Under the pieces are notes generated by a model. It saw only the letters and a list, made by a program, of their open reading frames with translations, made no database searches and was not told the DNA's origin. The position numbers and the translations under genes were made by a program. Positions 8,303 through 29,293 of a stretch of DNA of 64,000 nt are shown piece by piece (within the stretch, counting starts at the first letter, position 1; each line of letters opens with the position of its first letter). This DNA comes from Geminocystis sp. NIES-3708 (GTDB lineage: Bacteria > Cyanobacteriota > Cyanobacteriia > Cyanobacteriales > Cyanobacteriaceae): positions 1,053,656-1,117,655 of the forward strand of contig NZ_AP014815.1 of NCBI RefSeq assembly GCF_001548095.1. Direction: 5' to 3'.

Positions 8303-9250
8303 TTATTTAATGATTAATTGTTGACAATCTAATTTTATTTGTTTTTTTAGCTCATCTAAAGAAGAAAATTTTTGCTCAGGACGAATAAATGTCAGCAATT
8401 TAACTGTTAAAATTTGATTATATAAATCTCCTTTCCAATCTAATAAATGAATTTCTACTGATATATTTTTACCTTCGATAGTTGGACGTGTGCCAATATT
8501 CATTACGCCATGTAAATTAGATAGAATATGATTATTTTTTACCTCTACTTTAACACTATAAACTCCTTTTTTAGGTAAGAATTTTTCGGAAGAAATTTCT
8601 AAATTAGCAGTAGGAAAACCAATTTTTCGACCTAATTTTTTCCCTTCAATTACTTTGCCAATAATTTGATATTCTCTTCCTAACATTTCTGTTGCTAATT
8701 CTGGTTTACCATTACTTAAACTGTGTCGAATAGAAGAGCTACTAATTCTAACATTTTCTTTTTTTATCGTGAGATTTTGTTGTTTAGTAATACTGACTTT
8801 TACATTATATTTATTAGCTAATGATTCTAAATATTTTGCATTTCCTTGTCGTTGATAACCGAAACAAAAGTCTTCCCCAACACTAATAAATTTAGCGTTG
8901 ATTTTTTTAATTAAAATATCTTCTACAAATTTTTCGGCACTTAAATGAGCTAATTCTCTGTCAAAAGGTAATAATATTAACTGTTTAATTCCTAACTTTT
9001 CTAACAAAATACATTTTTCAGGAATAGGAGTAAGAAGTTGTTTCTTTATGCCTGTAAAAAATTCTTGAGGATGAGGAATAAATGTAACTAAAGAAGGTGT
9101 TAAATTTGAATATTTAAAAATAGGTTGAATTACTTGTTGATGCCCTTTATGTATTCCATCAAAATTACCCAAGGCTATAGCACAGGGATACAATATTTTT
9201 TCCGTAGAAGAGGAAATATTTTCGAGGGATGCAGTAATAATCTTCAACAC
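8303..9250 (-). CDS. ribF: Bifunctional riboflavin kinase / FMN adenylyltransferase RibF
   Basis: 315 residues in two domains. The N-terminal nucleotidyltransferase domain has GNFDGIHKGHQ (about residues 28-38) and the later SSSSIRHSL element. The C-terminal flavokinase domain has GRKIGFPTANLE (about 207-218) and GVMNIGTRPT. It phosphorylates riboflavin to FMN and adenylylates this to FAD in the cytoplasm. Length and domain order are typical. It lies 127 bp downstream of menC on the same strand. Confidence 0.95.
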   Translation of the reverse strand: MLKIITASLENISSSTEKILYPCAIALGNFDGIHKGHQQVIQPIFKYSNLTPSLVTFIPHPQEFFTGIKKQLLTPIPEKCILLEKLGIKQLILLPFDRELAHLSAEKFVEDILIKKINAKFISVGEDFCFGYQRQGNAKYLESLANKYNVKVSITKQQNLTIKKENVRISSSSIRHSLSNGKPELATEMLGREYQIIGKVIEGKKLGRKIGFPTANLEISSEKFLPKKGVYSVKVEVKNNHILSNLHGVMNIGTRPTIEGKNISVEIHLLDWKGDLYNQILTVKLLTFIRPEQKFSSLDELKKQIKLDCQQLIIK

Positions 9251-17029: not shown

Positions 17030-20000
17030 TCAAAATCGCATTTGATACCTCACTTTAAACTCACCATAGATATAGTCATAAGAAACCGTAACATTAGAGT
17101 TATCTTTTACTTCATAAACCCCTTCAACCAAAGGAAAAACCCTTAAATCTTTCATCCCTAAAGGTTTACCCCAAGTACTAACTTTTTCATTGATCCCGAA
17201 ACTGATATTATTGGCTAAAGGTACAACCAAAAATTGGACTAAACCATTTTCAAATAATTCCTCACCGCTTAACTCTTGTAATTGAGTTGCTAAATTTAAC
17301 AATTGTCCCCCTATAATTAAATTAATTAATTCCCCTTCACTACGATTAGGAGTACTACTCAAAGAAACTAACGGAGAATTTAACAAGTTTAAGTTTGTGC
17401 CTTGTTGGTTTAAGACTGTTAAGTTAATACATTGTGATACTTTATTTAATTGTGACGGTGATAGTTGAATATTATTAGAGATAGGAGTCGAAGACGGCAC
17501 ACGACAAATACCATAACCGTTATCGGATAAAACTGGTAACAATTGAGCCAAGCCACCATCAATTTTTAACACTACTCTGATGGTTTCTCCCCTTCCACCC
17601 TTTAAAATAGGATCTGATATTTCGTTTCGTTGAGTAGTGGGTAATTGTCTTGAGTAATCTACTATATCCCCTTGAAATTCTAAATCAATGTCTGGATTGA
17701 GAATATTTTCATCAGGTTGAAATGTGATTATATTCTTATTTGTACGAGATAGAAAAAATGTAGTTTGTCCTACAGCTAAATCGGATGATAAACTTGTTAA
17801 AGGACTTGCTCCTCCCAAGTAAATTTGACCTCTACGAATATTAATTGCCCCATCTGCCCTGATATTTTGCCAATCTAATACACTACCATTAAGACTAAGT
17901 TCACCACCGAATAAAAAGCGATAAAGTCTTCTTTCAATAGCTTGTGTATTATTTAGTTTCAGAGCAAAATCTTTAAATTCAGGTTGAAAAAAGTAGGAAT
18001 TTGAGGAGGAAGAATCACCAAGCCAATCTTGCCACAGTTGTTTATTTTCCGATTTTGTGATAGTTGTTTCGGCTTCAGGAAGGCTAAAGTTGCCACCGTT
18101 TAGATTTACATAACCACCGATTTGTGGCTTTAATACTGTACCATCTATGGTTATATCAGCGTCAACTTTCCCTGAATAAATATCTTTTATTTGTAAGGCT
18201 TGGTTAGGAATGTTTAAGGTAAGGAGATTTTCGTTATTTTCTAAAGGTTTAATTAAGGGTAAAATTCCTGAAATATTAACATCAGTATTGTTAATTTTTG
18301 CTTGTAAATTAGTTACATCAATCGCTTGTTTATCTTCTAATAAGTTAACTTCTCCTGATAAATTAATAGGGGTATTCAAAGTAATAGAATTGATTTTTGC
18401 TTCCTCAAAATTTATGTTTCCTCCCACTCTAATTTGGTCTAAATTAAAGTTATTAAAAAGTTGTGATAATGAAGCAGTAGTTATCCTTAAATTGGTAGAG
18501 ATTTTACCTTCTTGTAATTGTAAATTACCTCTAGTAAATAGCTCTAAAAATGTTATATTTTCAGTGTTAAGATGTAAATTAATTTCTGCTAGTTTCTCTT
18601 CTAAATTTAAAGGATGATAAGGTAAAATAGCATTAAATTTAATATTTTTAGTATCAAATGTGGCTATATCTAATTGATAATTTTGATAAGTAAATTTAGT
18701 ATTAATTTTATCTTCAATTATTGCCCCATCTATAGCTGTGTTATTTAAAACTAAGTTACCTTTTATTTCCGGATTTAATAAATTTCCAGCGAGGTTTCCT
18801 TCCATATCAATAATACTATTCACATCGAATGGTAATGGGAAAAATGCCGTAATAAAATCGAGAGGAAAATCTTTGATTTTAAATTTTCCTTCTTGGGTTT
18901 CAGGAGATAAATTTCCAGCAAAGAAAATTTGACTATTGGCAACATTTAGAAGAAAAGGATTAACAGTTAAATTATCATTTTTGAAATTAGCATTAACAGC
19001 AATTTTTTGAATGGGAATTGCTTGACTGTCTTGAATTATTAAGCCTAAACCTTCAACAATATTCGGAAAAGGTTGTTGTGGTAGCCATTGCCATTGATTA
19101 CCCTCAAAGTTAACTCCAATCTCAGGTTTAGTTAGTTTACCTCCCAGAAGAATCTCTCCTTTATAGCCACCAGATATGTCTAAATCATTAGGTATTGTAC
19201 CAGATTCCACTTGTTTGGCGATCGCACGAATTTGATCATCTATACGAGAAAGTAGATTGATTTTAGTTTTAATGGAGTCGTCTTTCTTGTCAAGAAATTG
19301 GGAAGGAATAGCAGAAGCATCGGCGAAAAAGTCTTGATTTTGCCATTGTTTGAGTAAGCCAGTTAAGGTAGCGACATCGGTTATTTGTAAAGTGTTAAAA
19401 ATGTCTTCGATATTGCCTTGTAAGTTAATTTTGCCTTCGATATTTTGCGTGACTAAGTTTATTTTTCCTTGTAAATCATAGACAGTTTCGGCAAATTTTA
19501 GCCGTCCATTATTTAATTGTGCGATATTATTTTGATAGTTAAAATTTGTTATAAATTGTTTACCGATAATATTGCCAATACCGAGGTTATCTAACTTTAA
19601 GTCGCCTTTTGCTGTTAAATCAGTTAAATTGATAGCAAAATTTGTTGCTAGGTTTCCTTTAATTTCGCCTTTAATACCATAATTAATAACTGGTTTTAGT
19701 TGTAAAGTTTCTAAGGCAAAGTTTTTTACGGAAGCAATAAACTGATTTTCTTCTCGTCTTCCTTGAAAATTAAAAGGAAAATTCCCACTTTTATTAATTT
19801 CGATATTGTTAGGAGTGAAGGGTAAAGTAAAATTAGCTGATGGAATTGATAACTTTTTGTTAATAAATTCGGCAGCGATGATGTCTTCTTTTCCTTGTAA
19901 ATTGAAGAAGATTTTTTGACTCGGATTAATAATAACTTTTCCTGTCAATAAAGACTCGAATTGCAATTGACTAAAATTAAGGTTATGAAGAGTTAAATTT

Positions 20001-23000
20001 CCTTCGAGGTTAAGATTATTTTTGCCAAGGGGATTAGTTAATAAATTTGTTGCCGTGAAGACTCCCTCAAAATTTGCCTTACCATCGAGATTAACTGATT
20101 GCGGAAGAAAATTCATCCCTTTATTGTTAGGCAAGGAAGAAACTTGATTATTTTTTTTAACTTCTTTTTTTCCTTGAGAAACAAAATTCTTTTGATTATT
20201 ATTCAAAGACAAAAGTTGATTGACGGGAATAACATTTAAGCTAGAGTTAGCCGTTACTTGCAGTTGTAAATTATTAACATCAGGTTTAGTGAAAACATTG
20301 ACAAGATTAAACTTACCTTTAGCATTGACGATATTTTTTCCTGATTCGATAACCGCCGATAAAATATTGACAGGAAAAGAAGTGACTTTCTCACCAAAAA
20401 CGAGAAGATTCCCCCCAATATTTATTTGACTATTAATATTTTCGACATCAGCAAGATTAATTTTCGACTTACTATCAAGAAATGCTAACTGTTGATTGAG
20501 ACTTTTAAGATTAAGATTTTCACTATTAATTTGACTTTGCCACTGATTGTTATTAACTTGCGTTGAAAGAAAAACTTTTCCTTCAGCAATATTCGTATTA
20601 ACTTTTCCTTGCAAATTTAAACTCGGCAACGGTGAAAAAGTTTGAGTATCGATATAGTTAACGGCAAAAGACAACAACTCAGAAAAATTACTAGAGAGAC
20701 TGATATTAGTATGAATATTTTTTGCTTTTAGCTTACTATCAGGTAAAAATTGTGAAAGAGAAATATTTTGAGTCTTTCCATCTAAGGTAAAAACGCCATT
20801 GTTAACGGTAGCTTGACTATTAAAATTTCCATCTCCGAAATTACCTTGAAAATTTCCTGTCAAGTTAAGACTATTAATGGTAGAAAAATTATTTAAGTTA
20901 GAAGGTAGCCTTACTAATTGATATAACTCCCTCGTTTTAGCTGAAACATTTATTTGACTAGCAAAATTATCATTTTCTTTTAGCTTTGGTTTTCCTTCTT
21001 CTTCTCGAAAACTATTAATGATTTGATTAAGACTAACTTGATTGAGATTAGCGGAAAATTCAGTCTTTTCCTCATCAATTTTAACGACAGTATTTAATAA
21101 ACCGTTGTTGTCAATGTGCAGTTGACTATCAGCAGTAATAACTAAACTCGAAGGAAGATTCTCTCTGTTTTCGTTACCGATGTCTAATAATTGTGCAACA
21201 TCACCACTAAGATTAAATTGACTATTAATAATATGAGTCGTTGTGGGTAAAGAAGGGAATAAATTATTGACAGAAATTTGATTTGCTTCACCGTTAATAA
21301 CTAAATTGCCATTAACTAAACGAGTATCTAAATCTAAATTACCATCATCGATAATAAGGTTAACTTTTCCTTCCCCTTCTATACTATTAAAATTAATTCT
21401 TGCCAATTCATTACTATTTTGATATTGATTTTTTTCTTCACCTACTCTTCCTGTCTGCCTGTCTTCCTGTCTTCTTGTCTCCCCGTCTCCCCGTCTTCCT
21501 GTTTCAACGAAATTGCCTCGAAAACTAACATCAAAATCTTTTGCTTTGATGGGTAAGTTAACATTGACAGGAAGATTCCCACAGTTATCAGAGTTTTGAC
21601 AAAATTGACGAAGAAAAGGAGTTAAGTTGATATTGTCATTACTAACTGCCGAAACTTGCCAACTTTTTTCTTGAAAATTACTATTACCGTTAACTTGAAT
21701 CTGACTTTCATTAATAAGTAATTCCGTATCGAGAAGATTAACCTCATTTTTACTAATAACTAACTTTCCTTGTGTCGAAATGATACCTAAATTTTCTCCC
21801 GTCATATTCGGCAAAGAAAAAGAGACTCTTCCTTGAGGTTGCAAAAGATTGCCTTTAATTTCTCCCGCCGCTAATAAATTTCCTATATCAATGCCAGTCG
21901 GTAAAATATCATAACTATCAATTAATTGACTTGAAGGTAAATTGGCAGTAAATCGAAAATTGAAAGGAGTCTTCTCGATTTGAAAAGGTTTTTTATCAGT
22001 AAGAGTTTGACGAAAATTAGTATTAATAACTCCTTGACTGACAATTTTTCCCTTAGTCGGAGGTTGAATGACAATTTCTTTAACAGTAACTTTATCTAAG
22101 TCTGCCAAAAATTGACTATTAATTTCCCCTAACTCTAATTTATCGATTTCACTATTTTTTACTTTAACCTTTCCTAAAATTTTGGGATTATCTATCTCTC
22201 CTTTAACCTGAAAATTTCCTGATAATAAACCATTAACAAAAACAGGAGTCTTGATATTTAAACTAGGTAAAACTCGATTGATAATTACTGGGTTAATATT
22301 TGCTGTTAAATTATATCCTTCTTCTCTAGCAATATCACCGTTAACAAAACCGCCTAACTCACCTAAAGTAAATTTAGCCGTTTCAATATTAAGAGAATCT
22401 TCTTCCAAATTTAAAAACACATTCGCTGTAAACTTTTTTTCTAAGAGGGGAATCTTATTTAGTTTTTCTATTTCACTAATCTTCGAGGAGTTTAATTTTC
22501 CTTCTACATCCTCCAAACTAATATTACCCTTAACTTTTGTCGCCCTAAATTCTGGCAAGGAAGAAGTCACTAATTCTAAATTACTGTTAAATCTTCCTTC
22601 TTTTATCTCTAAAGGTAAATTAGGAATTAAATAAGCAACTTCTGGCAAATAAAGATGATGAATTTCCACCTGATTTTTACTTTTCGTATTGCTTAATAAA
22701 GTTTCTCCCTTAATATCAATGCGACTATTGTTAATGGAATTTTCTAACTGATAACTTAATGGTTGAGTGTCATTATCATAAACTAACTGAAGTTTTCCCT
22801 TTGTCTTTATTTCCACCGCTTGAGTTTGCATATTAGGAGTAACTGCAATCTTGCTATTATTTAAACGTAAATTAATTTTCGTTTCTATGGGTAATGGTGA
22901 TAACTTAAAAGAATTAGGTAAAGGCTTTTTTTCCTCCATTAAGAATAAAGTATCTAATTGCCCATAACCCATAACATCATTAACAATAACATCAAGAAAT

Positions 23001-23368
23001 AATTGACGATGCAAAATTATTGATAATAAATCAACCCTCACTTTAATCGCATCTATTTCCAAAAAACTTGAGTCTTTTTGTGTCTGTGGAATCTCTAAAT
23101 TTTCAAAAATAACTTGATTAAACGAAAAAAAACTAATGTTTCCTAAACTAACATCTCTGTTTAAAACTTTCTCTAATTCTTTTTCTACTTTTAAAGGAAT
23201 AACTGTTAATAAATGCTTACCACCAGCATAACCACCCATAATTATCGCCGTTAACGTTATCAAGGAGATAACTTGAGTTTGAGGTTTCTGTAAGATTTTT
23301 ACCACCTTATTGCCGAAACTCCTTGTTGCTTGATTATTTTCTGAATCTAGCGGTGATTGATTAGTCAT
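17030..23368 (-). CDS. tamB: TamB/TIC236-type translocation and assembly module protein
   Basis: 2112 residues. A single N-terminal membrane anchor (about 34-52) is followed by some 1600 residues of repetitive beta-strand sequence (recurring GxxNLxG, INLQGN, GEIKGNL units). The C-terminal DUF490/TamB domain (about 1700-2112) ends in YQMRF with an aromatic last residue. The beta-taco family spans the periplasm and works with Omp85 proteins in outer-membrane biogenesis and lipid transfer; TIC236 is the plastid descendant. Length fits cyanobacterial homologues. Residues about 620-645 are encoded partly by a nucleotide octamer repeat (see 21450-21505) and break the beta pattern. Confidence 0.93.
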   Translation of the reverse strand: MTNQSPLDSENNQATRSFGNKVVKILQKPQTQVISLITLTAIIMGGYAGGKHLLTVIPLKVEKELEKVLNRDVSLGNISFFSFNQVIFENLEIPQTQKDSSFLEIDAIKVRVDLLSIILHRQLFLDVIVNDVMGYGQLDTLFLMEEKKPLPNSFKLSPLPIETKINLRLNNSKIAVTPNMQTQAVEIKTKGKLQLVYDNDTQPLSYQLENSINNSRIDIKGETLLSNTKSKNQVEIHHLYLPEVAYLIPNLPLEIKEGRFNSNLELVTSSLPEFRATKVKGNISLEDVEGKLNSSKISEIEKLNKIPLLEKKFTANVFLNLEEDSLNIETAKFTLGELGGFVNGDIAREEGYNLTANINPVIINRVLPSLNIKTPVFVNGLLSGNFQVKGEIDNPKILGKVKVKNSEIDKLELGEINSQFLADLDKVTVKEIVIQPPTKGKIVSQGVINTNFRQTLTDKKPFQIEKTPFNFRFTANLPSSQLIDSYDILPTGIDIGNLLAAGEIKGNLLQPQGRVSFSLPNMTGENLGIISTQGKLVISKNEVNLLDTELLINESQIQVNGNSNFQEKSWQVSAVSNDNINLTPFLRQFCQNSDNCGNLPVNVNLPIKAKDFDVSFRGNFVETGRRGDGETRRQEDRQTGRVGEEKNQYQNSNELARINFNSIEGEGKVNLIIDDGNLDLDTRLVNGNLVINGEANQISVNNLFPSLPTTTHIINSQFNLSGDVAQLLDIGNENRENLPSSLVITADSQLHIDNNGLLNTVVKIDEEKTEFSANLNQVSLNQIINSFREEEGKPKLKENDNFASQINVSAKTRELYQLVRLPSNLNNFSTINSLNLTGNFQGNFGDGNFNSQATVNNGVFTLDGKTQNISLSQFLPDSKLKAKNIHTNISLSSNFSELLSFAVNYIDTQTFSPLPSLNLQGKVNTNIAEGKVFLSTQVNNNQWQSQINSENLNLKSLNQQLAFLDSKSKINLADVENINSQINIGGNLLVFGEKVTSFPVNILSAVIESGKNIVNAKGKFNLVNVFTKPDVNNLQLQVTANSSLNVIPVNQLLSLNNNQKNFVSQGKKEVKKNNQVSSLPNNKGMNFLPQSVNLDGKANFEGVFTATNLLTNPLGKNNLNLEGNLTLHNLNFSQLQFESLLTGKVIINPSQKIFFNLQGKEDIIAAEFINKKLSIPSANFTLPFTPNNIEINKSGNFPFNFQGRREENQFIASVKNFALETLQLKPVINYGIKGEIKGNLATNFAINLTDLTAKGDLKLDNLGIGNIIGKQFITNFNYQNNIAQLNNGRLKFAETVYDLQGKINLVTQNIEGKINLQGNIEDIFNTLQITDVATLTGLLKQWQNQDFFADASAIPSQFLDKKDDSIKTKINLLSRIDDQIRAIAKQVESGTIPNDLDISGGYKGEILLGGKLTKPEIGVNFEGNQWQWLPQQPFPNIVEGLGLIIQDSQAIPIQKIAVNANFKNDNLTVNPFLLNVANSQIFFAGNLSPETQEGKFKIKDFPLDFITAFFPLPFDVNSIIDMEGNLAGNLLNPEIKGNLVLNNTAIDGAIIEDKINTKFTYQNYQLDIATFDTKNIKFNAILPYHPLNLEEKLAEINLHLNTENITFLELFTRGNLQLQEGKISTNLRITTASLSQLFNNFNLDQIRVGGNINFEEAKINSITLNTPINLSGEVNLLEDKQAIDVTNLQAKINNTDVNISGILPLIKPLENNENLLTLNIPNQALQIKDIYSGKVDADITIDGTVLKPQIGGYVNLNGGNFSLPEAETTITKSENKQLWQDWLGDSSSSNSYFFQPEFKDFALKLNNTQAIERRLYRFLFGGELSLNGSVLDWQNIRADGAINIRRGQIYLGGASPLTSLSSDLAVGQTTFFLSRTNKNIITFQPDENILNPDIDLEFQGDIVDYSRQLPTTQRNEISDPILKGGRGETIRVVLKIDGGLAQLLPVLSDNGYGICRVPSSTPISNNIQLSPSQLNKVSQCINLTVLNQQGTNLNLLNSPLVSLSSTPNRSEGELINLIIGGQLLNLATQLQELSGEELFENGLVQFLVVPLANNISFGINEKVSTWGKPLGMKDLRVFPLVEGVYEVKDNSNVTVSYDYIYGEFKVRYQMRF
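21450..21505. repeat. Seven octamer units inside tamB
   Basis: Seven imperfect 8-bp units of the form CCTGTCTT / CCCGTCTC run head to tail. Read on the coding strand they give an Arg/Gly/Glu/Asp-rich peptide (ETGRRGDGETRRQEDRQTGR). Such tracts are normally intergenic in cyanobacteria; related degenerate CTGTCTTC tracts occur between genes near 27404, 28700 and 39628. Confidence 0.8.
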
Positions 23369-23706
23369 GTTTCACTCTCACAATATCAATTCAATCTGAT
23401 ATTTTCTTTTAACTATAACAGACGTTAAAAGACAAAGGTGAAGTATTGATTTTAATTAGTTTTTAGGTTGCATAATATTTTAATTAATATATTATCCACC
23501 AGATAATGACGTTGTTAAAAAATCAAAAATTATTTGTTAACTTTTCTTTTCAAATTTTTCAATATTACCCTTGACAAATCATAATTATTTTGACACAATA
23601 GAGTACATATGATAATAGTGATCCGCCTATTTTGTAATATAAAAGAATTAAAATGGCTGACAATAAATTCATCAACCATTTACATACAAAAAAATAATCT
23701 TCAAAA
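23369..23706. other. Intergenic stretch between tamB and petL-type gene
   Basis: 337 bp of AT-rich sequence. It holds the tamB upstream region, one good sigma70-type promoter on the plus strand (23590-23618) and a 14-codon open frame (23653-23697) too short to call. No RNA gene was recognised. Confidence 0.5.
23590..23618 (+). promoter_or_regulatory. Sigma70-type promoter without an obvious gene
   Basis: TTGACA (23590-23595), a 17-bp spacer and TAATAG (23613-23618). The predicted transcript would start near 23625 and run antisense across the PetL-type gene. No coding gene follows on the plus strand before 24047. Confidence 0.4.
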
Positions 23707-23802
23707 TTAAAGAAATTTAATAGCACGGAAACCATAATATAAGCTTAAAGCAATCACGGAAAATCCACCAATAAATCCTACGTAAGCAATCAATCCGGTC
23801 AT
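23707..23802 (-). CDS. petL: Cytochrome b6f small subunit, PetL-type (31 residues)
   Basis: A 31-codon frame beginning ATG ACC GGA and ending KFL-stop. A clear ribosome-binding site AGGAGA sits 6 bases upstream of the ATG. The peptide is one hydrophobic helix (IAYVGFIGGFSVIALSLYYG) ending in FRAIKFL. The YxGF...LYYGxRAIK pattern matches PetL, a peripheral single-helix subunit stabilising the cytochrome b6f dimer in the thylakoid. It stands alone, as petL usually does. Assignment rests on recalled family pattern, so another single-helix photosynthetic peptide is possible. Confidence 0.72.
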   Translation of the reverse strand: MTGLIAYVGFIGGFSVIALSLYYGFRAIKFL

Positions 23803-23862
23803 AAAGAAAATCTCCTAATAAATTATTAATAATTTCGTATTTTATAATACTTTAAGACAATG

Positions 23863-23980
23863 AACAAGGTTAAGTAAGTGAGTATAATTATTTGTGGATT
23901 TTATTTTTTCTAAGCTTTTGGTAATAATGGGTTTAAACCCCTTGGCTACTTATACACAATTAATTTTGCCGAAGTACTTA
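23863..23980. repeat. Left arm of a ~120-bp inverted repeat flanking the NERD-helicase gene
   Basis: This segment matches the reverse complement of 25991-26122 along its whole length, with two small gaps (about 9 and 6 bp) and scattered mismatches. A 24-bp block is identical (23947-23970 against 26001-26024). It contains the palindrome GGGTTTAAACCC. It lies between the PetL-type start (23802) and the NERD-helicase start (24047), so it may also carry promoters for either. Confidence 0.85.
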
Positions 23981-24046
23981 AGAATATTTCAGATTTTTAC
24001 ATAGGATAGTAAAATGTAAGTCCCAATATTTATTGTGAGTTAAAGT

Positions 24047-25966
24047 ATGGCAAAAGTATTTCCTTCTTTAGAGCAATTTCCTAATCTTCGTCAAAAACCC
24101 ACTGATGGAGAATCTCATTTAATCAATTTTTTGATCAATAATTTAGATGATTCTTATGAAATCTATTTTCAGCCTTTTTTAAATGGCGATCGCCCTGATA
24201 TTATATTAATGAGAGAATATTCGGGAGTAATGATTATTGAAGTAAAAGACTGGCATTTAGAAAATTATAGAATTAATCAAAAAAAGCAATGGGAAGTTAC
24301 TCAAAATGGTGAAAATTGGTATAGTATTAAATCACCAATAGATCAAGTTTTAGTTTATAAACAAAATCTTTATGATTTGCATATTGAGAATTTATTAGAA
24401 AAAAATATTAAACAATCTCATCATTGGGCAATTGTCACTTGTGCGGTTTATTTCCATTGTGAAACAGAAGCAAAAATTAATCACTTTTTAACTGGTCATT
24501 TTCAACAGGATCAAAGTTATCTTAACTTTTTAAGTCATCAAATAATATTAGGAAATGATTCTTTAAAAAAGGAGAATTTTAATAAGATTTTAGATAAAAA
24601 TTATTTGAATAAAAAATCAAAATATTTTGATGAGCAATTATATAAAAGTTTTAAACGTCATTTACAACCTCCTTATCACACAAAAGAAGAAGGGAAAGAG
24701 TTAAATTATACCAGTAAACAACAAGAGTTAATCATCAGTAAAATAGGGCAACAAAAAGCTAAAGGTGTAGCTGGTTCGGGAAAAACTTGTGTGTTAGCAA
24801 AAAGAGCAGTAAATGCTTTAAAAAGAATAGAAAATGAAGATAATATTTATCAACCAAAAATTCTGATACTCACATATAATATAACTTTAATAAATTATAT
24901 TCATGATCGAATTAGTGAGATAAAGGAAGATTTTAATTGGAGTAGTTTTCATATTATAAATTATCACGATTTTATCACTCAAGAATTAAATAATTTAGAA
25001 ATAAAAATAGATATTCCTGATGATTTTGATGATTGGAATAGTGAATCCCGTTCTCTATATTTTGAGACTAATTATTATAGCAATCTTGATTTATTTCTTA
25101 ACAATACAAGAAAAATTAAGCAATATTCTGTCATTTTTATTGATGAAATTCAGGATTATAAAAAAGAATGGGTAGAAATAATTAAAAAATGTTATTTAGA
25201 AGATAATGGAGAATATGTAGTTTTTGGAGATGAAAAACAAAATGTTTATGAACGAAAAATGGAAGTAGATAAAAAACCTTATACTGGAATAGGTGGTGCA
25301 TGGAATTTATTAAAACAATCTTTTCGTTTATCCTCTAATATTGCTAATTTAGCTAGTAATTTTCAGCAAGAATTTTTTACTGATAAATATGAAATAGAAA
25401 AGGTGGAAATTAGCGAACATAATATATTTTCTTTTTCACAAAATATAGAATATATTTCTATGACTTCATTTTCTTCAGAAAAAATCACTAATTTAATTAA
25501 AGAAAAAGTAGAAAAATATGCTATTCACCCTAATGATATTTCTATTCAAAGTTCACGAATAGGATGTTTAAGAAAAATAGACTATTATTTTAGAAATACT
25601 CAAAAATTAAAAACAACTAGAATATTTGAAACTCAAGAAATCTATCAAAATTTAGCCGAAAAAAATCTCACTAGAAATAGATTTAGAAATACTTTAGAAA
25701 CTATCAGAAAAAATAAAAAAAGACATTTTTGGATGAATACAGGAAATACTAAATTTTCTACCATACACAGCTTTAAAGGTTGGGAAATCGATACTTTATT
25801 TTTACTTATTGAAAAAGACTCAGAAAAAAACTGTTTTATAACTGATGAATTAATTTATACGGCTATTACTCGTTGTCGTAATAATTTATTTATCATCGAT
25901 TTAGAAGGCAATCGTTATAAAGATTTTTTCCAATCTTTTTTATCATCTGATCACATCCGTGTTTAA
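24047..25966 (+). CDS. NERD nuclease-SF1 (UvrD-like) helicase fusion
   Basis: 639 residues. The N-terminal NERD nuclease-related domain (about 15-130) has PD-(D/E)xK residues in order: Glu22, Asp51 (DRPDIIL), Glu65 and Lys67 (IIEVKDW). A superfamily 1 helicase follows: Walker A GVAGSGKT (about 239), Walker B VIFIDEIQD (about 362), a QSFRLS motif (about 424), and C-terminal STIHSFKGWEIDTLF and YTAITRCRNNL motifs. All core motifs look intact. Such fusions are found scattered in bacteria, often in predicted defence or repair loci. Here the gene is alone and fully enclosed by inverted repeats. Function is not established. Confidence 0.88.
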   Translation: MAKVFPSLEQFPNLRQKPTDGESHLINFLINNLDDSYEIYFQPFLNGDRPDIILMREYSGVMIIEVKDWHLENYRINQKKQWEVTQNGENWYSIKSPIDQVLVYKQNLYDLHIENLLEKNIKQSHHWAIVTCAVYFHCETEAKINHFLTGHFQQDQSYLNFLSHQIILGNDSLKKENFNKILDKNYLNKKSKYFDEQLYKSFKRHLQPPYHTKEEGKELNYTSKQQELIISKIGQQKAKGVAGSGKTCVLAKRAVNALKRIENEDNIYQPKILILTYNITLINYIHDRISEIKEDFNWSSFHIINYHDFITQELNNLEIKIDIPDDFDDWNSESRSLYFETNYYSNLDLFLNNTRKIKQYSVIFIDEIQDYKKEWVEIIKKCYLEDNGEYVVFGDEKQNVYERKMEVDKKPYTGIGGAWNLLKQSFRLSSNIANLASNFQQEFFTDKYEIEKVEISEHNIFSFSQNIEYISMTSFSSEKITNLIKEKVEKYAIHPNDISIQSSRIGCLRKIDYYFRNTQKLKTTRIFETQEIYQNLAEKNLTRNRFRNTLETIRKNKKRHFWMNTGNTKFSTIHSFKGWEIDTLFLLIEKDSEKNCFITDELIYTAITRCRNNLFIIDLEGNRYKDFFQSFLSSDHIRV

Positions 25967-25990
25967 TCTCAAATCTCAATTATAAATTGT

Positions 25991-26122
25991 TAAATACTTA
26001 GGCAAAATTAATTGTGTATAAGTAGTCTAAGCCAAGGGGTTTAAACCCCTTGTTACCCATTGTTGCCAAAGGTTTAAGAAAGATAAAATCCACAATTAAT
26101 GATACTCATTTACTTAATTGTT
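25991..26122. repeat. Right arm of the inverted repeat flanking the NERD-helicase gene
   Basis: Reverse-complement partner of 23863-23980. It has two short extra segments relative to the left arm, one of which completes a perfect 20-bp palindrome (26033-26052, CAAGGGGTTTAAACCCCTTG). It ends 10 bp from the stop codon of the RNase D gene, so it may also serve as a shared transcription end for these convergent genes. Confidence 0.85.
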
Positions 26123-26131
26123 AATTTTTAA

Positions 26132-26767
26132 CTACGTTTGATGTTCAAACACATTGTTATAATACATCAAATCTAAATCTACAAATAAAGAAATGGCTTC
26201 AAAACATCTTTTCGTTAACTCCCAACGATCTTCTCTTTGCAACATTGTAATTAGCTTTTGTCTTACAGGAATTAAATAACGAACATCATTAGCCGCATAA
26301 CTTAGTTGTTCAGCTGATAAACTATTAACATTACCCCAATCTGAACTTTGAGCCTTTTTATCTAATTCTACCCCTTCTAATTCTTGTACAAGGCTTTTTA
26401 AACCATGACTTTGAGTATAAGTACGTGCAATTTTACTAGCTATTTTCGTACAAAAAATAGATGCTGTTTCCACATTAAAAGTATATTTGAATTGACAAAC
26501 ATCAAATCGAGCGTAATGAAAAATTTTCGTAATTTTAGAAGATTCTAATAATCTAGTCAAATTAGGAGCAGAAGTTTGCCCTTTCGTAATACGAATGGCG
26601 GTAACAAAACCTTGAGGATCACATATTTGTACTAAACAAAGGCGATCGCGCTGTGGTACTAAACCCATAGTTTCAGTATCCATAGCTAAACATTCTGCTT
26701 GGAGATACTGATTAAAAATATTTTCAGGTAAATCCCCTTCACACACTAAGAAATTATTTAATGACAT
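26132..26767 (-). CDS. rnd: Ribonuclease D-like 3'-5' exonuclease
   Basis: 211 residues, comprising only the DEDDy exonuclease domain without the HRDC domains of E. coli RNase D, as is usual in cyanobacteria. Exo I is AMDTETMG (about residue 29), exo II is IFHYARFDV (about 82) and exo III is YAANDVRYL (about 157). It probably trims 3' ends of tRNA or other stable RNAs. It is convergent with the NERD-helicase gene. Confidence 0.9.
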   Translation of the reverse strand: MSLNNFLVCEGDLPENIFNQYLQAECLAMDTETMGLVPQRDRLCLVQICDPQGFVTAIRITKGQTSAPNLTRLLESSKITKIFHYARFDVCQFKYTFNVETASIFCTKIASKIARTYTQSHGLKSLVQELEGVELDKKAQSSDWGNVNSLSAEQLSYAANDVRYLIPVRQKLITMLQREDRWELTKRCFEAISLFVDLDLMYYNNVFEHQT

Positions 26768-26861
26768 TTATATAAAAGTTGAGAATTGAGAGATTGAGGA
26801 TTAGAGATGAGGAATTTTTATTGTCCTCTTTTTTCTCTTGTGATTACTTATTACTTATTAA

Positions 26862-27164
26862 TTATTCTTCTTGGTGACGAGGATAAATTTGCTCGGCTTC
26901 AGGACAATCATCTGACACAAGTATTTCACTATAACCACGAGGCACAGAAGCTAATTTCCGACTAATAGCACCAATGCTTTCAAGACGAACAAATTCTTCC
27001 CAAGAGCTATTCTCATAGTCTTCTTCCATTTCATAACGAATAGTAACTACATCGCCCTCGATGGCAATGACTTGAGCGTCTTCAATCCAACGTTGTTGAT
27101 CTCGCAGGAAAATAGAGACATCACAACCTTCTTTATACATCTGATAAATTTTGCGGTCTAACAT
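26862..27164 (-). CDS. Conserved cyanobacterial protein (DUF6679-like)
   Basis: 100 residues, no signal or membrane segment. The pattern VSIFLRDQQRWIEDAQVIAIEGDVVTIRYE, WEEFVRLESIGAI and LASVPRG is one I recall from a small protein family widespread in cyanobacteria, with a compact beta-barrel-like N-terminal half and an acidic C-terminal tail. No function is known to me. Upstream of RNase D on the same strand with a 94-bp gap; co-transcription is possible. The DUF number is from memory. Confidence 0.7.
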   Translation of the reverse strand: MLDRKIYQMYKEGCDVSIFLRDQQRWIEDAQVIAIEGDVVTIRYEMEEDYENSSWEEFVRLESIGAISRKLASVPRGYSEILVSDDCPEAEQIYPRHQEE

Positions 27165-27597
27165 ATACTTCTCCTTACACTGCTAAAGATCAAAATAATT
27201 TTTAGAATAATTGTAATGGTAAAACTTCTTAAGGCGAGTTTTTTTTTCAAAATCAAGGTAAATAAAAATGTCTATGGTAACTAATTTTTATCTAAGTTCG
27301 AGCTAAAAATAAGCGGTGACTGACTCTCATTGACACGTAGATTGTGTTTTTCATAAATTAATAAAACTTTCTCAAAAATATACAAAGACTGAGATTTTTT
27401 CTCCTTGTCCACTTTTCTACTCGTCCTTCTGTCTTGTCTTCATTATTTTTTTTCTATCGAACTGAAATAATTTTTAAGATTTGAGTACATAAACATTATT
27501 GGAAACATCAAAAATATTAAAAGCCATGAAGATAAACTTTGGATGGGCATGGTTATTTCTTAGGGAGAATTGATTCTAAAATTTTGAACTTATTGAT
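27165..27597. other. 433-bp intergenic region with dispersed repeats
   Basis: No supported gene. It holds a 16-bp motif (27320-27335, CTGACTCTCATTGACA) that recurs with one change at 38153-38167, and a CTTGTCC/CTGTCTTG tract ending TCGAACTGA (27404-27470) that is similar to 39628-39680. It contains the upstream regions of the minus-strand gene at 26862-27164 and nothing else recognisable. Confidence 0.6.
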
Positions 27598-28521
27598 CTA
27601 TCGTAGCATTTTATTTGGATTAATCTTGATCTTATTAGATTGAATAATATTAAAAGTATATTCAGCGACCAATTTTGTTTGTTCTAACATGGCAAAATGT
27701 CCACAATCATTAATTTCATACACATTTTGTTGATGATGTTGAAAAAGAGTATGAAAACTAGCTAAATGTTTAACATATTGAGTTTCCATAATTTGATCTT
27801 GTTTTCCAGCGATAAAATATACGGGTTGATTTAAACGAGCTACTATTTGCGGTAAATAATGAACTTCATCTTCAGTGGTAGATTCTAATAATGAACCAAT
27901 AGCCGCTTTTTCATCAGCGAATAAAAAATCTTTGAGTCTTTGTTTACCCCACCGAAGTTTTAAAGGTTTTTTGACCATCATTATAGCAAAAATAAAATCA
28001 AAAAATGGTATCTTCAACAACCATTGAGGACGAAATTTAACTAAGTTTTCTCCTGCTTTGCGAAAACGCTCAAATTCTTCTTGAAGATAAATTCCTCCCC
28101 CAGCATTGACACAAATCACTCCTTCGACAATATCACTGCAAATATCAGCTCCCCATAAAGCAATACTACCACCCAAAGAATGACCAATAAGCCAAGCATT
28201 TTGAATATTTAATTGAGTTAATAATTCTTTTAAATCTTCCGCATAACTATGTAAACTAAAAGATTTATTTTTTGATAATAGTTGATTCTTTTCATCACTT
28301 TCTTCCGTTGATGAAGATAAAATCTGAGAAGCGCCAAATCCTCTTAAATCATAAACTAAACAAGAATATTGATGCTTGAGTTGATCAATTAATGGTGTCC
28401 AATATTGACCACTTAATAACCATCCATGAATAAAAACCAATATTGGTTTAGATGAGTCGTAAGATTCACTTTTTGTAAATTCATAATAATGATTAACACC
28501 ACGAATATTAATTTTATTCAT
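27598..28521 (-). CDS. Alpha/beta-fold hydrolase
   Basis: 307 residues with a single alpha/beta hydrolase domain. An oxyanion-hole HGWLLSG lies near residue 32, the nucleophile elbow GHSLGGS near 117, an acid candidate in AGKQDQI near 240, and the catalytic His in CGHFAMLEQ near 275. No signal peptide. A poorly conserved Ser/Glu-rich insertion occurs at about 70-88. Substrate cannot be told; related cyanobacterial enzymes are annotated as generic esterases or lipases. Confidence 0.85.
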   Translation of the reverse strand: MNKINIRGVNHYYEFTKSESYDSSKPILVFIHGWLLSGQYWTPLIDQLKHQYSCLVYDLRGFGASQILSSSTEESDEKNQLLSKNKSFSLHSYAEDLKELLTQLNIQNAWLIGHSLGGSIALWGADICSDIVEGVICVNAGGGIYLQEEFERFRKAGENLVKFRPQWLLKIPFFDFIFAIMMVKKPLKLRWGKQRLKDFLFADEKAAIGSLLESTTEDEVHYLPQIVARLNQPVYFIAGKQDQIMETQYVKHLASFHTLFQHHQQNVYEINDCGHFAMLEQTKLVAEYTFNIIQSNKIKINPNKMLR

Positions 28522-28750
28522 CGATTTAGTTGGCTTTCACTACTTCCTAATACATTTTAGGAAACGATTAAATTCTTCCATTTTTTCAATATAACTCACA
28601 ATGGTTAAAGAAAAAAATTGACTCCCAATATTGTATAAATTATTGTTAATGATATAAAATATTATGTTATCAACTATCAATTAGGCGGAAAGTCTTCGCC
28701 TCTCCTGTCTTCCGAGTCTTCCGATTTACCAGTTTTCGCCAGTAAATTAT

Positions 28751-29293
28751 TTACTGCAACAAATTAGTAGGAATATTCAATACGTTTCCTTTTATATCAG
28801 TCACTACAATATCCCATTGACCATTATTAGCTATTTCAAAAGTTATTCTTTCACCGTTACTGCTAATCATGGCATTTCTAATTTCATTTTTGAGCTGAGT
28901 AATTAAAGGACGTTTTTGCTGAGTTGTACGATCATATAAAAATAAACTTGATTTTCCTTGCACTAAAGCAATAAATAATAAATAACGTCCATCCTCTGAT
29001 ATAGAAGGGCTAGAAGCAATTTCTTCTATAGAATTTAAACCGGGCAAATCAATTAAACGTCTATTTTTTGCATCAAATAAAAAAACATCTTGAGAGCTAT
29101 TACGATCAGAAACAAATGTAATATACTGACCTGAAATAGAAGGATTTAATTCTGATGAACGACTATTAAAACTTTTATTATTATCAGAAAAAGAAAAACT
29201 TAATAATCGAGGATAATTACTACAACTGGTTAAGACAAAAACACACACACCAACATTGACAAAACGAAGTAATTTCACACTATTTACAAGCAT
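28751..29293 (-). CDS. Lipoprotein with TolB-like (PD40) beta-propeller repeats
   Basis: 180 residues. An N-terminal hydrophobic stretch ends in LTSC, a good lipobox with Cys24 as acylation site. The rest contains three repeats of the PD40/WD40-like type: NPSISGQYITFVSDRNSSQDVF, SPSISEDGRYLLFIALVQGK and AMISSNGERITFEIANNGQWD. Three blades are too few for a full propeller, so it may oligomerise or be a shortened relative of TolB. Probably periplasmic and membrane-tethered. Function unknown; divergent from pstS. Confidence 0.78.
   Translation of the reverse strand: MLVNSVKLLRFVNVGVCVFVLTSCSNYPRLLSFSFSDNNKSFNSRSSELNPSISGQYITFVSDRNSSQDVFLFDAKNRRLIDLPGLNSIEEIASSPSISEDGRYLLFIALVQGKSSLFLYDRTTQQKRPLITQLKNEIRNAMISSNGERITFEIANNGQWDIVVTDIKGNVLNIPTNLLQ

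What the first reader, a model, noticed from the sequence alone, without database searches (positions are those of the whole stretch)
23863..26122. NERD-nuclease/helicase gene enclosed by a long inverted repeat
One intact 639-residue NERD-SF1 helicase gene is bracketed by ~118- and ~132-bp arms that are inverted copies (a 24-bp block is identical; arms otherwise diverged by substitutions and two small gaps). The arms end just outside the gene on both sides and no transposase is present. This could be a non-autonomous mobile cassette carrying a defence-like gene, a gene captured between two copies of a palindromic repeat, or a hairpin-forming regulatory structure. No target-site duplication is obvious. 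The family is often found in predicted defence or repair roles, but nothing else of that kind is nearby.
Basis: partly seen in the sequence, partly recalled or inferred. Interest (0 to 1): 0.72.

Follow-up and report, generated by a model that had tools for sequence, protein, structure and literature searches.

The report
Gene between two common mini-transposons
The inverted arms around this nuclease-helicase gene are two copies of a small, probably inactive transposon scattered about forty times through this cyanobacterial genome, and the gene most likely lies between them by chance rather than as a mobile cassette.

Summary
The inverted arms are real (23871-23980 on +, 25991-26116 on -), but each is itself a ~106-126 bp miniature inverted-repeat transposable element (MITE) with its own ~28-bp ends. 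The family has 44 model matches in this genome and 104 in a congener without the gene. A relative with the gene has no model match, only three partial BLAST matches. The ends match a 1163-bp IS630/Tc1-mariner-type insertion sequence in a congener; this genome holds no close copy of its transposase. The gene (639 aa, NERD + SF1 helicase, PADLOC candidate 'C3a187') has three close orthologues, none with arms. In one of them (G001) it lies next to a gene that is also a near neighbour in the window. A pair of copies this close arises in 50% of random placements, an inverted one in 30%, and a second inverted pair here brackets msrB and one other ORF. The cassette reading is not supported. It is not excluded: the arms are unusually alike, share a 25-bp block found in no other copy examined, and no empty site was found. 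Verdict: ordinary; a new MITE family of a known kind beside a candidate defence gene.

The parts
23871..23980 (+). MITE copy 1 (left arm), ~110 bp; outer end is the IS 'left-type' end, inner end the 'right-type' end
   Evidence: nhmmer hit 83.6 bits, E 4.6e-25; model R1 hit G000:C1:1077526-1077635
25991..26116 (-). MITE copy 2 (right arm), ~126 bp, opposite orientation; lies between the convergent NERD gene and rnd
   Evidence: nhmmer hit 76.5 bits, E 7.6e-23; model R1 hit G000:C1:1079646-1079769
24047..25966 (+). NERD-SF1 helicase gene, 639 aa, bracketed by the MITEs but not part of them
   Evidence: RPDI (49), EVK (65), GVAGSGKT (240), DEIQD (366), TIHSFKG (572) present
23981..24046 (+). 66-bp stretch between left arm and start codon, weakly alignable with a ~60-bp upstream block shared by three orthologues
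   Evidence: MAFFT alignment
23707..23802 (-). petL (31 aa), left neighbour
   Evidence: translation; Pfam PetL 4.7e-9
26132..26767 (-). rnd-type 3'-5' exonuclease, right neighbour
   Evidence: Pfam PF01612 4.1e-41

Best explanation
The 'long inverted repeat' is two separate, old insertions of one MITE family, in opposite orientation, that happen to lie on either side of an unrelated NERD-SF1 helicase gene. How the MITE works (inferred from its ends and from known IS630 biology): a DDE transposase of an IS630/Tc1-mariner-type element binds the ~25-28 bp ends in trans, cuts the short element out and inserts it at a TA. No close copy of that transposase was found in this genome, so the copies are probably immobile relics. 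How the gene works (inferred): an SF1 helicase motor fused to a PD-(D/E)xK-type NERD nuclease that acts on DNA ends or replication intermediates, plausibly in anti-phage defence.
For: Own genome: 51 BLAST matches to the left arm at E <= 1, fragments included, and 44 model matches on both strands (43 places, since two overlap). Copy number is uncoupled from the gene: 104 model matches in G003, which has no match to the protein; 0 in G008, which has the gene, though one search found three 27-33 base matches in G008 and a weak pair of ends. MITE ends match the G002 IS at 23 of 28 (left) and 26 of 28 (right) positions. That IS encodes a 332-aa DDE_3 transposase (2e-37), with 9 full-length matches of 99-100%, one with a stop, and TA at both edges in the 7 loci printed, 6 distinct. 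In G000 the only transposase hit is 27% identical, E 6e-7. None of the 30 copies examined, of 44 rows, overlaps an ORF of 100 aa or more by over 20 bp. Orthologues in G001, G009 and G008 have no family member within about 4-5 kb on either side; in G001 one neighbour is shared with the window. Random placement gives a pair this close in 50% of runs, an inverted one in 30%. A second, degenerate inverted pair brackets msrB and a 122-aa ORF.
Against: Both arms fall in one 7-copy subfamily of the 20 copies treed (100/99). In that alignment they are each other's closest, 88.4%, with 3 of 190 pairs at least as similar, themselves included. With pairwise gapped alignment over 34 own copies they are among 10 of 561 such pairs and not mutual best. 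They share a 25-bp block found in no other of the 36 own loci examined. No empty site was found, so the order of gene arrival and arm insertion is not shown.
Confidence: 0.85

Rival explanations
1. A composite MITE transposon (TIME-COMP-like): the outermost ends of the two inverted MITEs were once used together by an IS630-type transposase, moving the gene as a passenger.
For: Inverted orientation with the same end type outermost on both sides; same subfamily, unusually similar arms and a private 25-bp block; the gene's surroundings differ among the four genomes, wholly in G008 and G009. Precedent: composite structures bounded by two Tn3-derived MITEs move intervening genes (PMC13367494, abstract and passages).
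Against: Orthologues have no arms, including G001, which shares a neighbour with the window; G008 has the gene and no model match; no close transposase in this genome; spacing expected by chance; msrB and another ORF are bracketed in a similar way. A TA target duplication would not discriminate, since the consensus begins and ends in TA.
Confidence: 0.06
2. The MITEs mark a rearrangement: the junction petL-gene-rnd was made by recombination or breakage at MITE copies, which also brought the gene beside rnd.
For: petL and rnd are not neighbours elsewhere: in 6 relatives with both on one contig they are over 400 kb apart, in 6 they lie on different contigs, in 2 one was not found. The block rnd - 100-aa gene - hydrolase - 28751 gene is whole in the window, G002 and G003 but split in G001, where the 28751 orthologue lies beside the NERD gene. 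In G003 a degenerate MITE lies on the other side of rnd.
Against: Gene order around rnd and petL also differs where no MITE profile hit is near rnd (G002, G004, G008, G009, G011); no donor with the gene between MITEs was found.
Confidence: 0.08
3. The arms are a regulatory hairpin or terminator pair for the gene.
For: The right arm lies between convergent genes and has a perfect palindromic core; the family consensus folds better than shuffles (z -3.67).
Against: The two actual arms do not (z -0.44 and -0.94); no terminator-like site, and 15 promoter-like sites against 17.2 in shuffles; orthologues have no arms.
Confidence: 0.01

Closest known systems
MITEs of IS630/Tc1-mariner type (ISY100 of Synechocystis is the studied cyanobacterial relative of the parent)
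   Same: Short, non-coding, ends matching a DDE-transposase IS, TA at the edges, intergenic, multicopy. For ISY100, 30 bp of each end worked as well as the whole element and insertion is at TA (PMC2170065, passages).
   Different: Family not named here; the parent IS was found in a congener, not in this genome; copies are diverged (mean pairwise identity 78%, 82%).
TIME-COMP, composite structures bounded by two MITEs
   Same: Two MITE copies around a passenger gene, inverted orientation.
   Different: The published ones include cases with flanking duplications that show transposition (PMC13367494, passages); here nothing shows movement as a unit.
PADLOC candidate C3a187 (NERD+UvrD)
   Same: E 2e-60, residues 1-625 to model positions 1-550 of 559.
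   Different: Candidate family; I saw no functional test of it; no partner gene was recognised beside it in the window.
Gabija GajB and Nhi-like or Mokosh proteins
   Same: SF1 helicase similarity to GajB models (best E 3.9e-10); NERD is listed for Mokosh type I and Nhi-like in PMC10952713 (passages).
   Different: GajB matches are partial and far weaker; no Nhi or Mokosh model appears at E <= 0.1.

Membership tests
MITE | short element with terminal inverted repeats in many dispersed copies | tested here: met
   106-bp consensus with ~28-bp ends; 44 model matches in G000
MITE | terminal repeats match an autonomous element | tested here: met
   23/28 and 26/28 identities to the ends of the 1163-bp IS in G002
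MITE | mobility shown by an empty site | tested here: inconclusive
   G003 has a degenerate copy in a ~410-bp gap between rnd and the 100-aa gene where the window has 94 bp; no clean empty site was found
IS630/Tc1-mariner (parent IS) | DDE_3 transposase with N-terminal helix-turn-helix | tested here: met
   DDE_3 2e-37; HTH_23, HTH_32 and HTH_29 above cut-off; HTH_Tnp_IS630 below its cut-off
IS630/Tc1-mariner (parent IS) | TA target duplication | tested here: inconclusive
   TA at both edges in 7 loci printed, 6 distinct; without an empty site the TA could belong to the repeat
composite MITE transposon (TIME-COMP-like) | movement as a unit, shown by duplications or by the same unit at a second site | tested here: not met
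   three orthologues lack arms; one copy of the gene in G000
composite MITE transposon (TIME-COMP-like) | cognate transposase available in the genome | tested here: not met
   only a 27% identical hit in G000; a past or foreign source is not excluded
NERD-UvrD candidate defence protein (C3a187) | near full-length profile match with NERD and SF1 helicase motifs | tested here: met
NERD-UvrD candidate defence protein (C3a187) | anti-phage activity | not testable with these tools
   needs a plaque assay

The most novel reading that the evidence does not exclude
A fossil composite transposon: two IS630-type MITEs that once carried a candidate defence gene between cyanobacterial genomes, after which copies elsewhere lost their arms. 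In the papers seen, such MITE-bounded units are described for Tn3-derived MITEs, and integrons flanked by MITEs are reported; none seen was of IS630 type with a defence gene.
Probability: 0.05. Interest if true: 0.45.

Novelty: new member of a known kind. Interest (0 to 1): 0.14.

Why it matters
It closes a plausible but probably wrong lead: a gene neatly enclosed by inverted arms looks like a cassette, yet with 36-44 MITE copies in a 4-Mb genome such an enclosure is expected by chance about every second time. If the cassette reading were true, it would add a route by which defence genes move without their own transposase. The MITE family, with 0 to 104 model matches among near relatives, could serve to study MITE bursts in this group.

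Tried and rejected
Empty-site comparison (petL next to rnd): rnd was found in 14 of 15 family genomes and petL in 14 of 15, own included; no relative's locus held both. In G001 the contig ends 90 bp beyond rnd, so it cannot tell. Inverted repeats around three orthologues: 4, 1 and 4 short pairs, none with arms on both sides of the gene. Shared insertion sites between G000 and relatives: no match over 150 bp among 10 relative and 35 own loci, so insertions were not dated. Structure prediction was not run. One search used 36 of the 44 rows: dropped were the copy on contig C2 and seven weaker, overlapping or partial rows on C1. One search used 34 own copies and 9 from relatives.

Searches show that G001 shares a right-hand neighbour with the window and that only G009 shows more similarity in this gene than in its other genes. 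I also wrote that G008 has no family member, whereas one search had shown three partial matches, and that the second pair brackets one gene, whereas it brackets two ORFs. I lowered the cassette rival from 0.08 to 0.06 and the novel case from 0.06 to 0.05, raised the rearrangement rival from 0.06 to 0.08, and cut the hairpin rival from 0.02 to 0.01 to balance.

Full report
WHAT IS THERE. The window holds one intact 639-aa ORF (24047-25966, +) and two inverted arms. The protein has NERD, UvrD-helicase and Viral_helicase1 domains above Pfam cut-off. A PADLOC model for the candidate defence family 'C3a187, NERD+UvrD' matches over almost its whole length, E 2e-60; GajB models match weakly and in part. 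RPDI (49), EVK (65), GVAGSGKT (240), DEIQD (366) and TIHSFKG (572) are present; that these are PD-(D/E)xK and SF1 motifs is my reading. The neighbours are petL (Pfam 4.7e-9) and an rnd-type exonuclease.

THE ARMS ARE A DISPERSED FAMILY. A BLAST search of the own genome with the left arm gave 51 matches at E <= 1, fragments included. The copies share ~28-bp terminal inverted repeats (TAAGTAAGTGAGTAAAATTAATTGT and TAAGTACTTATGCAAAATTAATTGT) around a palindromic core GGGTTTAAACCC. A pattern for one end had 67 + 62 matches with up to 3 mismatches, against 20 + 25 for the backward control. A profile of 20 copies finds 44 matches at E <= 0.01 in the genome, both strands, two of them overlapping. A profile of 26 copies finds only the two arms in the window. 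Of 30 copies with loci, none overlaps an ORF of 100 aa or more by over 20 bp. Model matches at E <= 0.001 in relatives are 6 (G001), 7 (G002), 104 (G003), 10 (G004), 42 (G009), 0 (G008) and 0 (G011), with at most 150 candidates scored per genome. By BLAST with the consensus, G008 has three partial matches of 27-33 bases, and one of these places shows a weak pair of ends, so G008 may hold decayed relatives.

PARENT ELEMENT. End-only matches in G002 led to a 1163-bp element whose ends agree with the MITE consensus at 23 of 28 (left) and 26 of 28 (right) positions. It encodes a 332-aa protein with DDE_3 (2e-37) and helix-turn-helix domains. G002 holds nine full-length matches of 99-100%, one with a stop codon, besides broken ones. 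Seven loci printed, six distinct, read TA at both edges. In the window's own genome the one hit is 27% identical, E 6e-7. I infer an IS630/Tc1-mariner-type MITE family whose parent is absent from this genome. For ISY100, a cyanobacterial relative, mini-elements with 30 bp of each end worked as well as the whole, and 34 of 39 products analysed in one assay had normal TA duplications (PMC2170065, passages).

THE GENE AND THE ARMS ARE UNCOUPLED. Of 60 genomes searched, own included, 12 match the protein; G001 (82%), G009 (77%) and G008 (75%) are close, so 4 of the 15 family genomes have it. Regions of 10-11.5 kb around these three hold no MITE profile hit and no inverted repeat bracketing the gene. 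For G008 and G009, a search with 47 window ORFs and petL finds only the gene itself. For G001 it also finds, directly to the right of the gene, the orthologue (83%) of window ORF 28751-29293, which in the window lies 2.8 kb to the right in the same orientation, beyond rnd, a 100-aa gene and a hydrolase. In G001 those three lie on another contig. A third ORF match near the G001 gene is only 29% identical. That four-gene block is whole in the window, G002 and G003. Nucleotide similarity (query window 22001-28500 only) begins 5 bases before the gene; a ~60-bp upstream block is shared by the three orthologues and weakly by the window.

TRANSFER OF THE GENE. G000-G001 identity is 81.4% for this protein, 91.0% for Rnd, 82% for the 28751 protein and 74% for the hydrolase; G000-G008 75.3, 83.9 and 74%: both compatible with plain descent. 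G000-G009 is 76.5% against 72.1, 66 and 61%, and G001-G009 80.9% against 71.2% for Rnd, which suggests transfer involving G009. The gene is under purifying selection (dN 0.10-0.15, dS 0.58-0.79 among the four).

CHANCE. With 36 copies placed at random on the 3.88-Mb contig, a pair as close as this occurs in 50% of runs, an inverted one in 30%. The genome has two such pairs: this one, 2011 bp apart, and one 1174 bp apart, also inverted, of weaker copies (E 1.8e-11 and 1.7e-7), that brackets a 122-aa ORF and a gene I read as msrB (SelR 3.7e-54), with a further fragment inside.

RESULTS AGAINST MY READING. Both arms fall in one 7-copy subfamily (100/99). There they are each other's closest, 88.4%, with 3 of 190 pairs at least as similar, themselves included. 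In a gapped comparison of 34 own copies, 10 of 561 pairs reach their identity and they are not mutual best. Their 25-bp common block, and even 13 bp of it, occurs in none of the other 34 own loci examined. Gene conversion between neighbours or a shared burst would give the same, but so would a common history. No empty site was found: petL and rnd are over 400 kb apart in 6 relatives, on different contigs in 6, and one of the two was not found in 2. The composite reading is thus improbable, not excluded. [quoted passage not shown]

HAIRPIN READING. The actual arms fold as RNA no better than shuffles (z -0.44 and -0.94), though the consensus does (z -3.67). No terminator-like site was found, and promoter-like sites are not in excess.

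NOVELTY. I did not find this MITE family in the listings, which cover only the held open library and are no proof of absence. It is a new member of a known kind.

Noticed in passing
L049:3576-3947 and L051:7365-7580 / 8957-9163: In G001 a DUF4258 protein gene (Pfam 1.2e-6) lies directly upstream of the NERD-helicase orthologue. In G008 the same gene lies there in two pieces about 1.4 kb apart, with other ORFs between; the one ORF tested had no Pfam hit. No match in the window. Possibly a partner gene.
   Followed up: partly
window 26132-29293; L173, L174, L175, L180: The block rnd - 100-aa gene - hydrolase - 28751 gene is whole in the window, G002 and G003 but split in G001, where the 28751 orthologue lies beside the NERD gene.
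   Followed up: partly
L051:5020-7272: The G008 orthologue (750 aa) carries an extra stretch of about 100 residues in its C-terminal half relative to the window protein.
   Followed up: no
L167:1493-2863 (G000:C1:2120492-2121862): A second inverted pair of the same MITE family, degenerate, brackets a 122-aa ORF and msrB, with further fragments nearby.
   Followed up: yes
L160 (G000:C2:38177-38299): One MITE copy has its TTTAAACCC core replaced by an unrelated GC-richer stretch with a palindrome (GCACTCGCATGAGTGC), as if another repeat were nested in it.
   Followed up: no
window 17030-23368 (-): The 2112-aa protein next to petL contains a repetitive stretch GRRGDGETRRQEDRQTGRVGEE, which looks like a tandem repeat inserted in frame.
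   Followed up: no
L055 (G003:C308): In G003 a degenerate MITE and further repeat-like DNA (about 410 bp) separate rnd from the 100-aa gene, against 94 bp in the window.
   Followed up: partly
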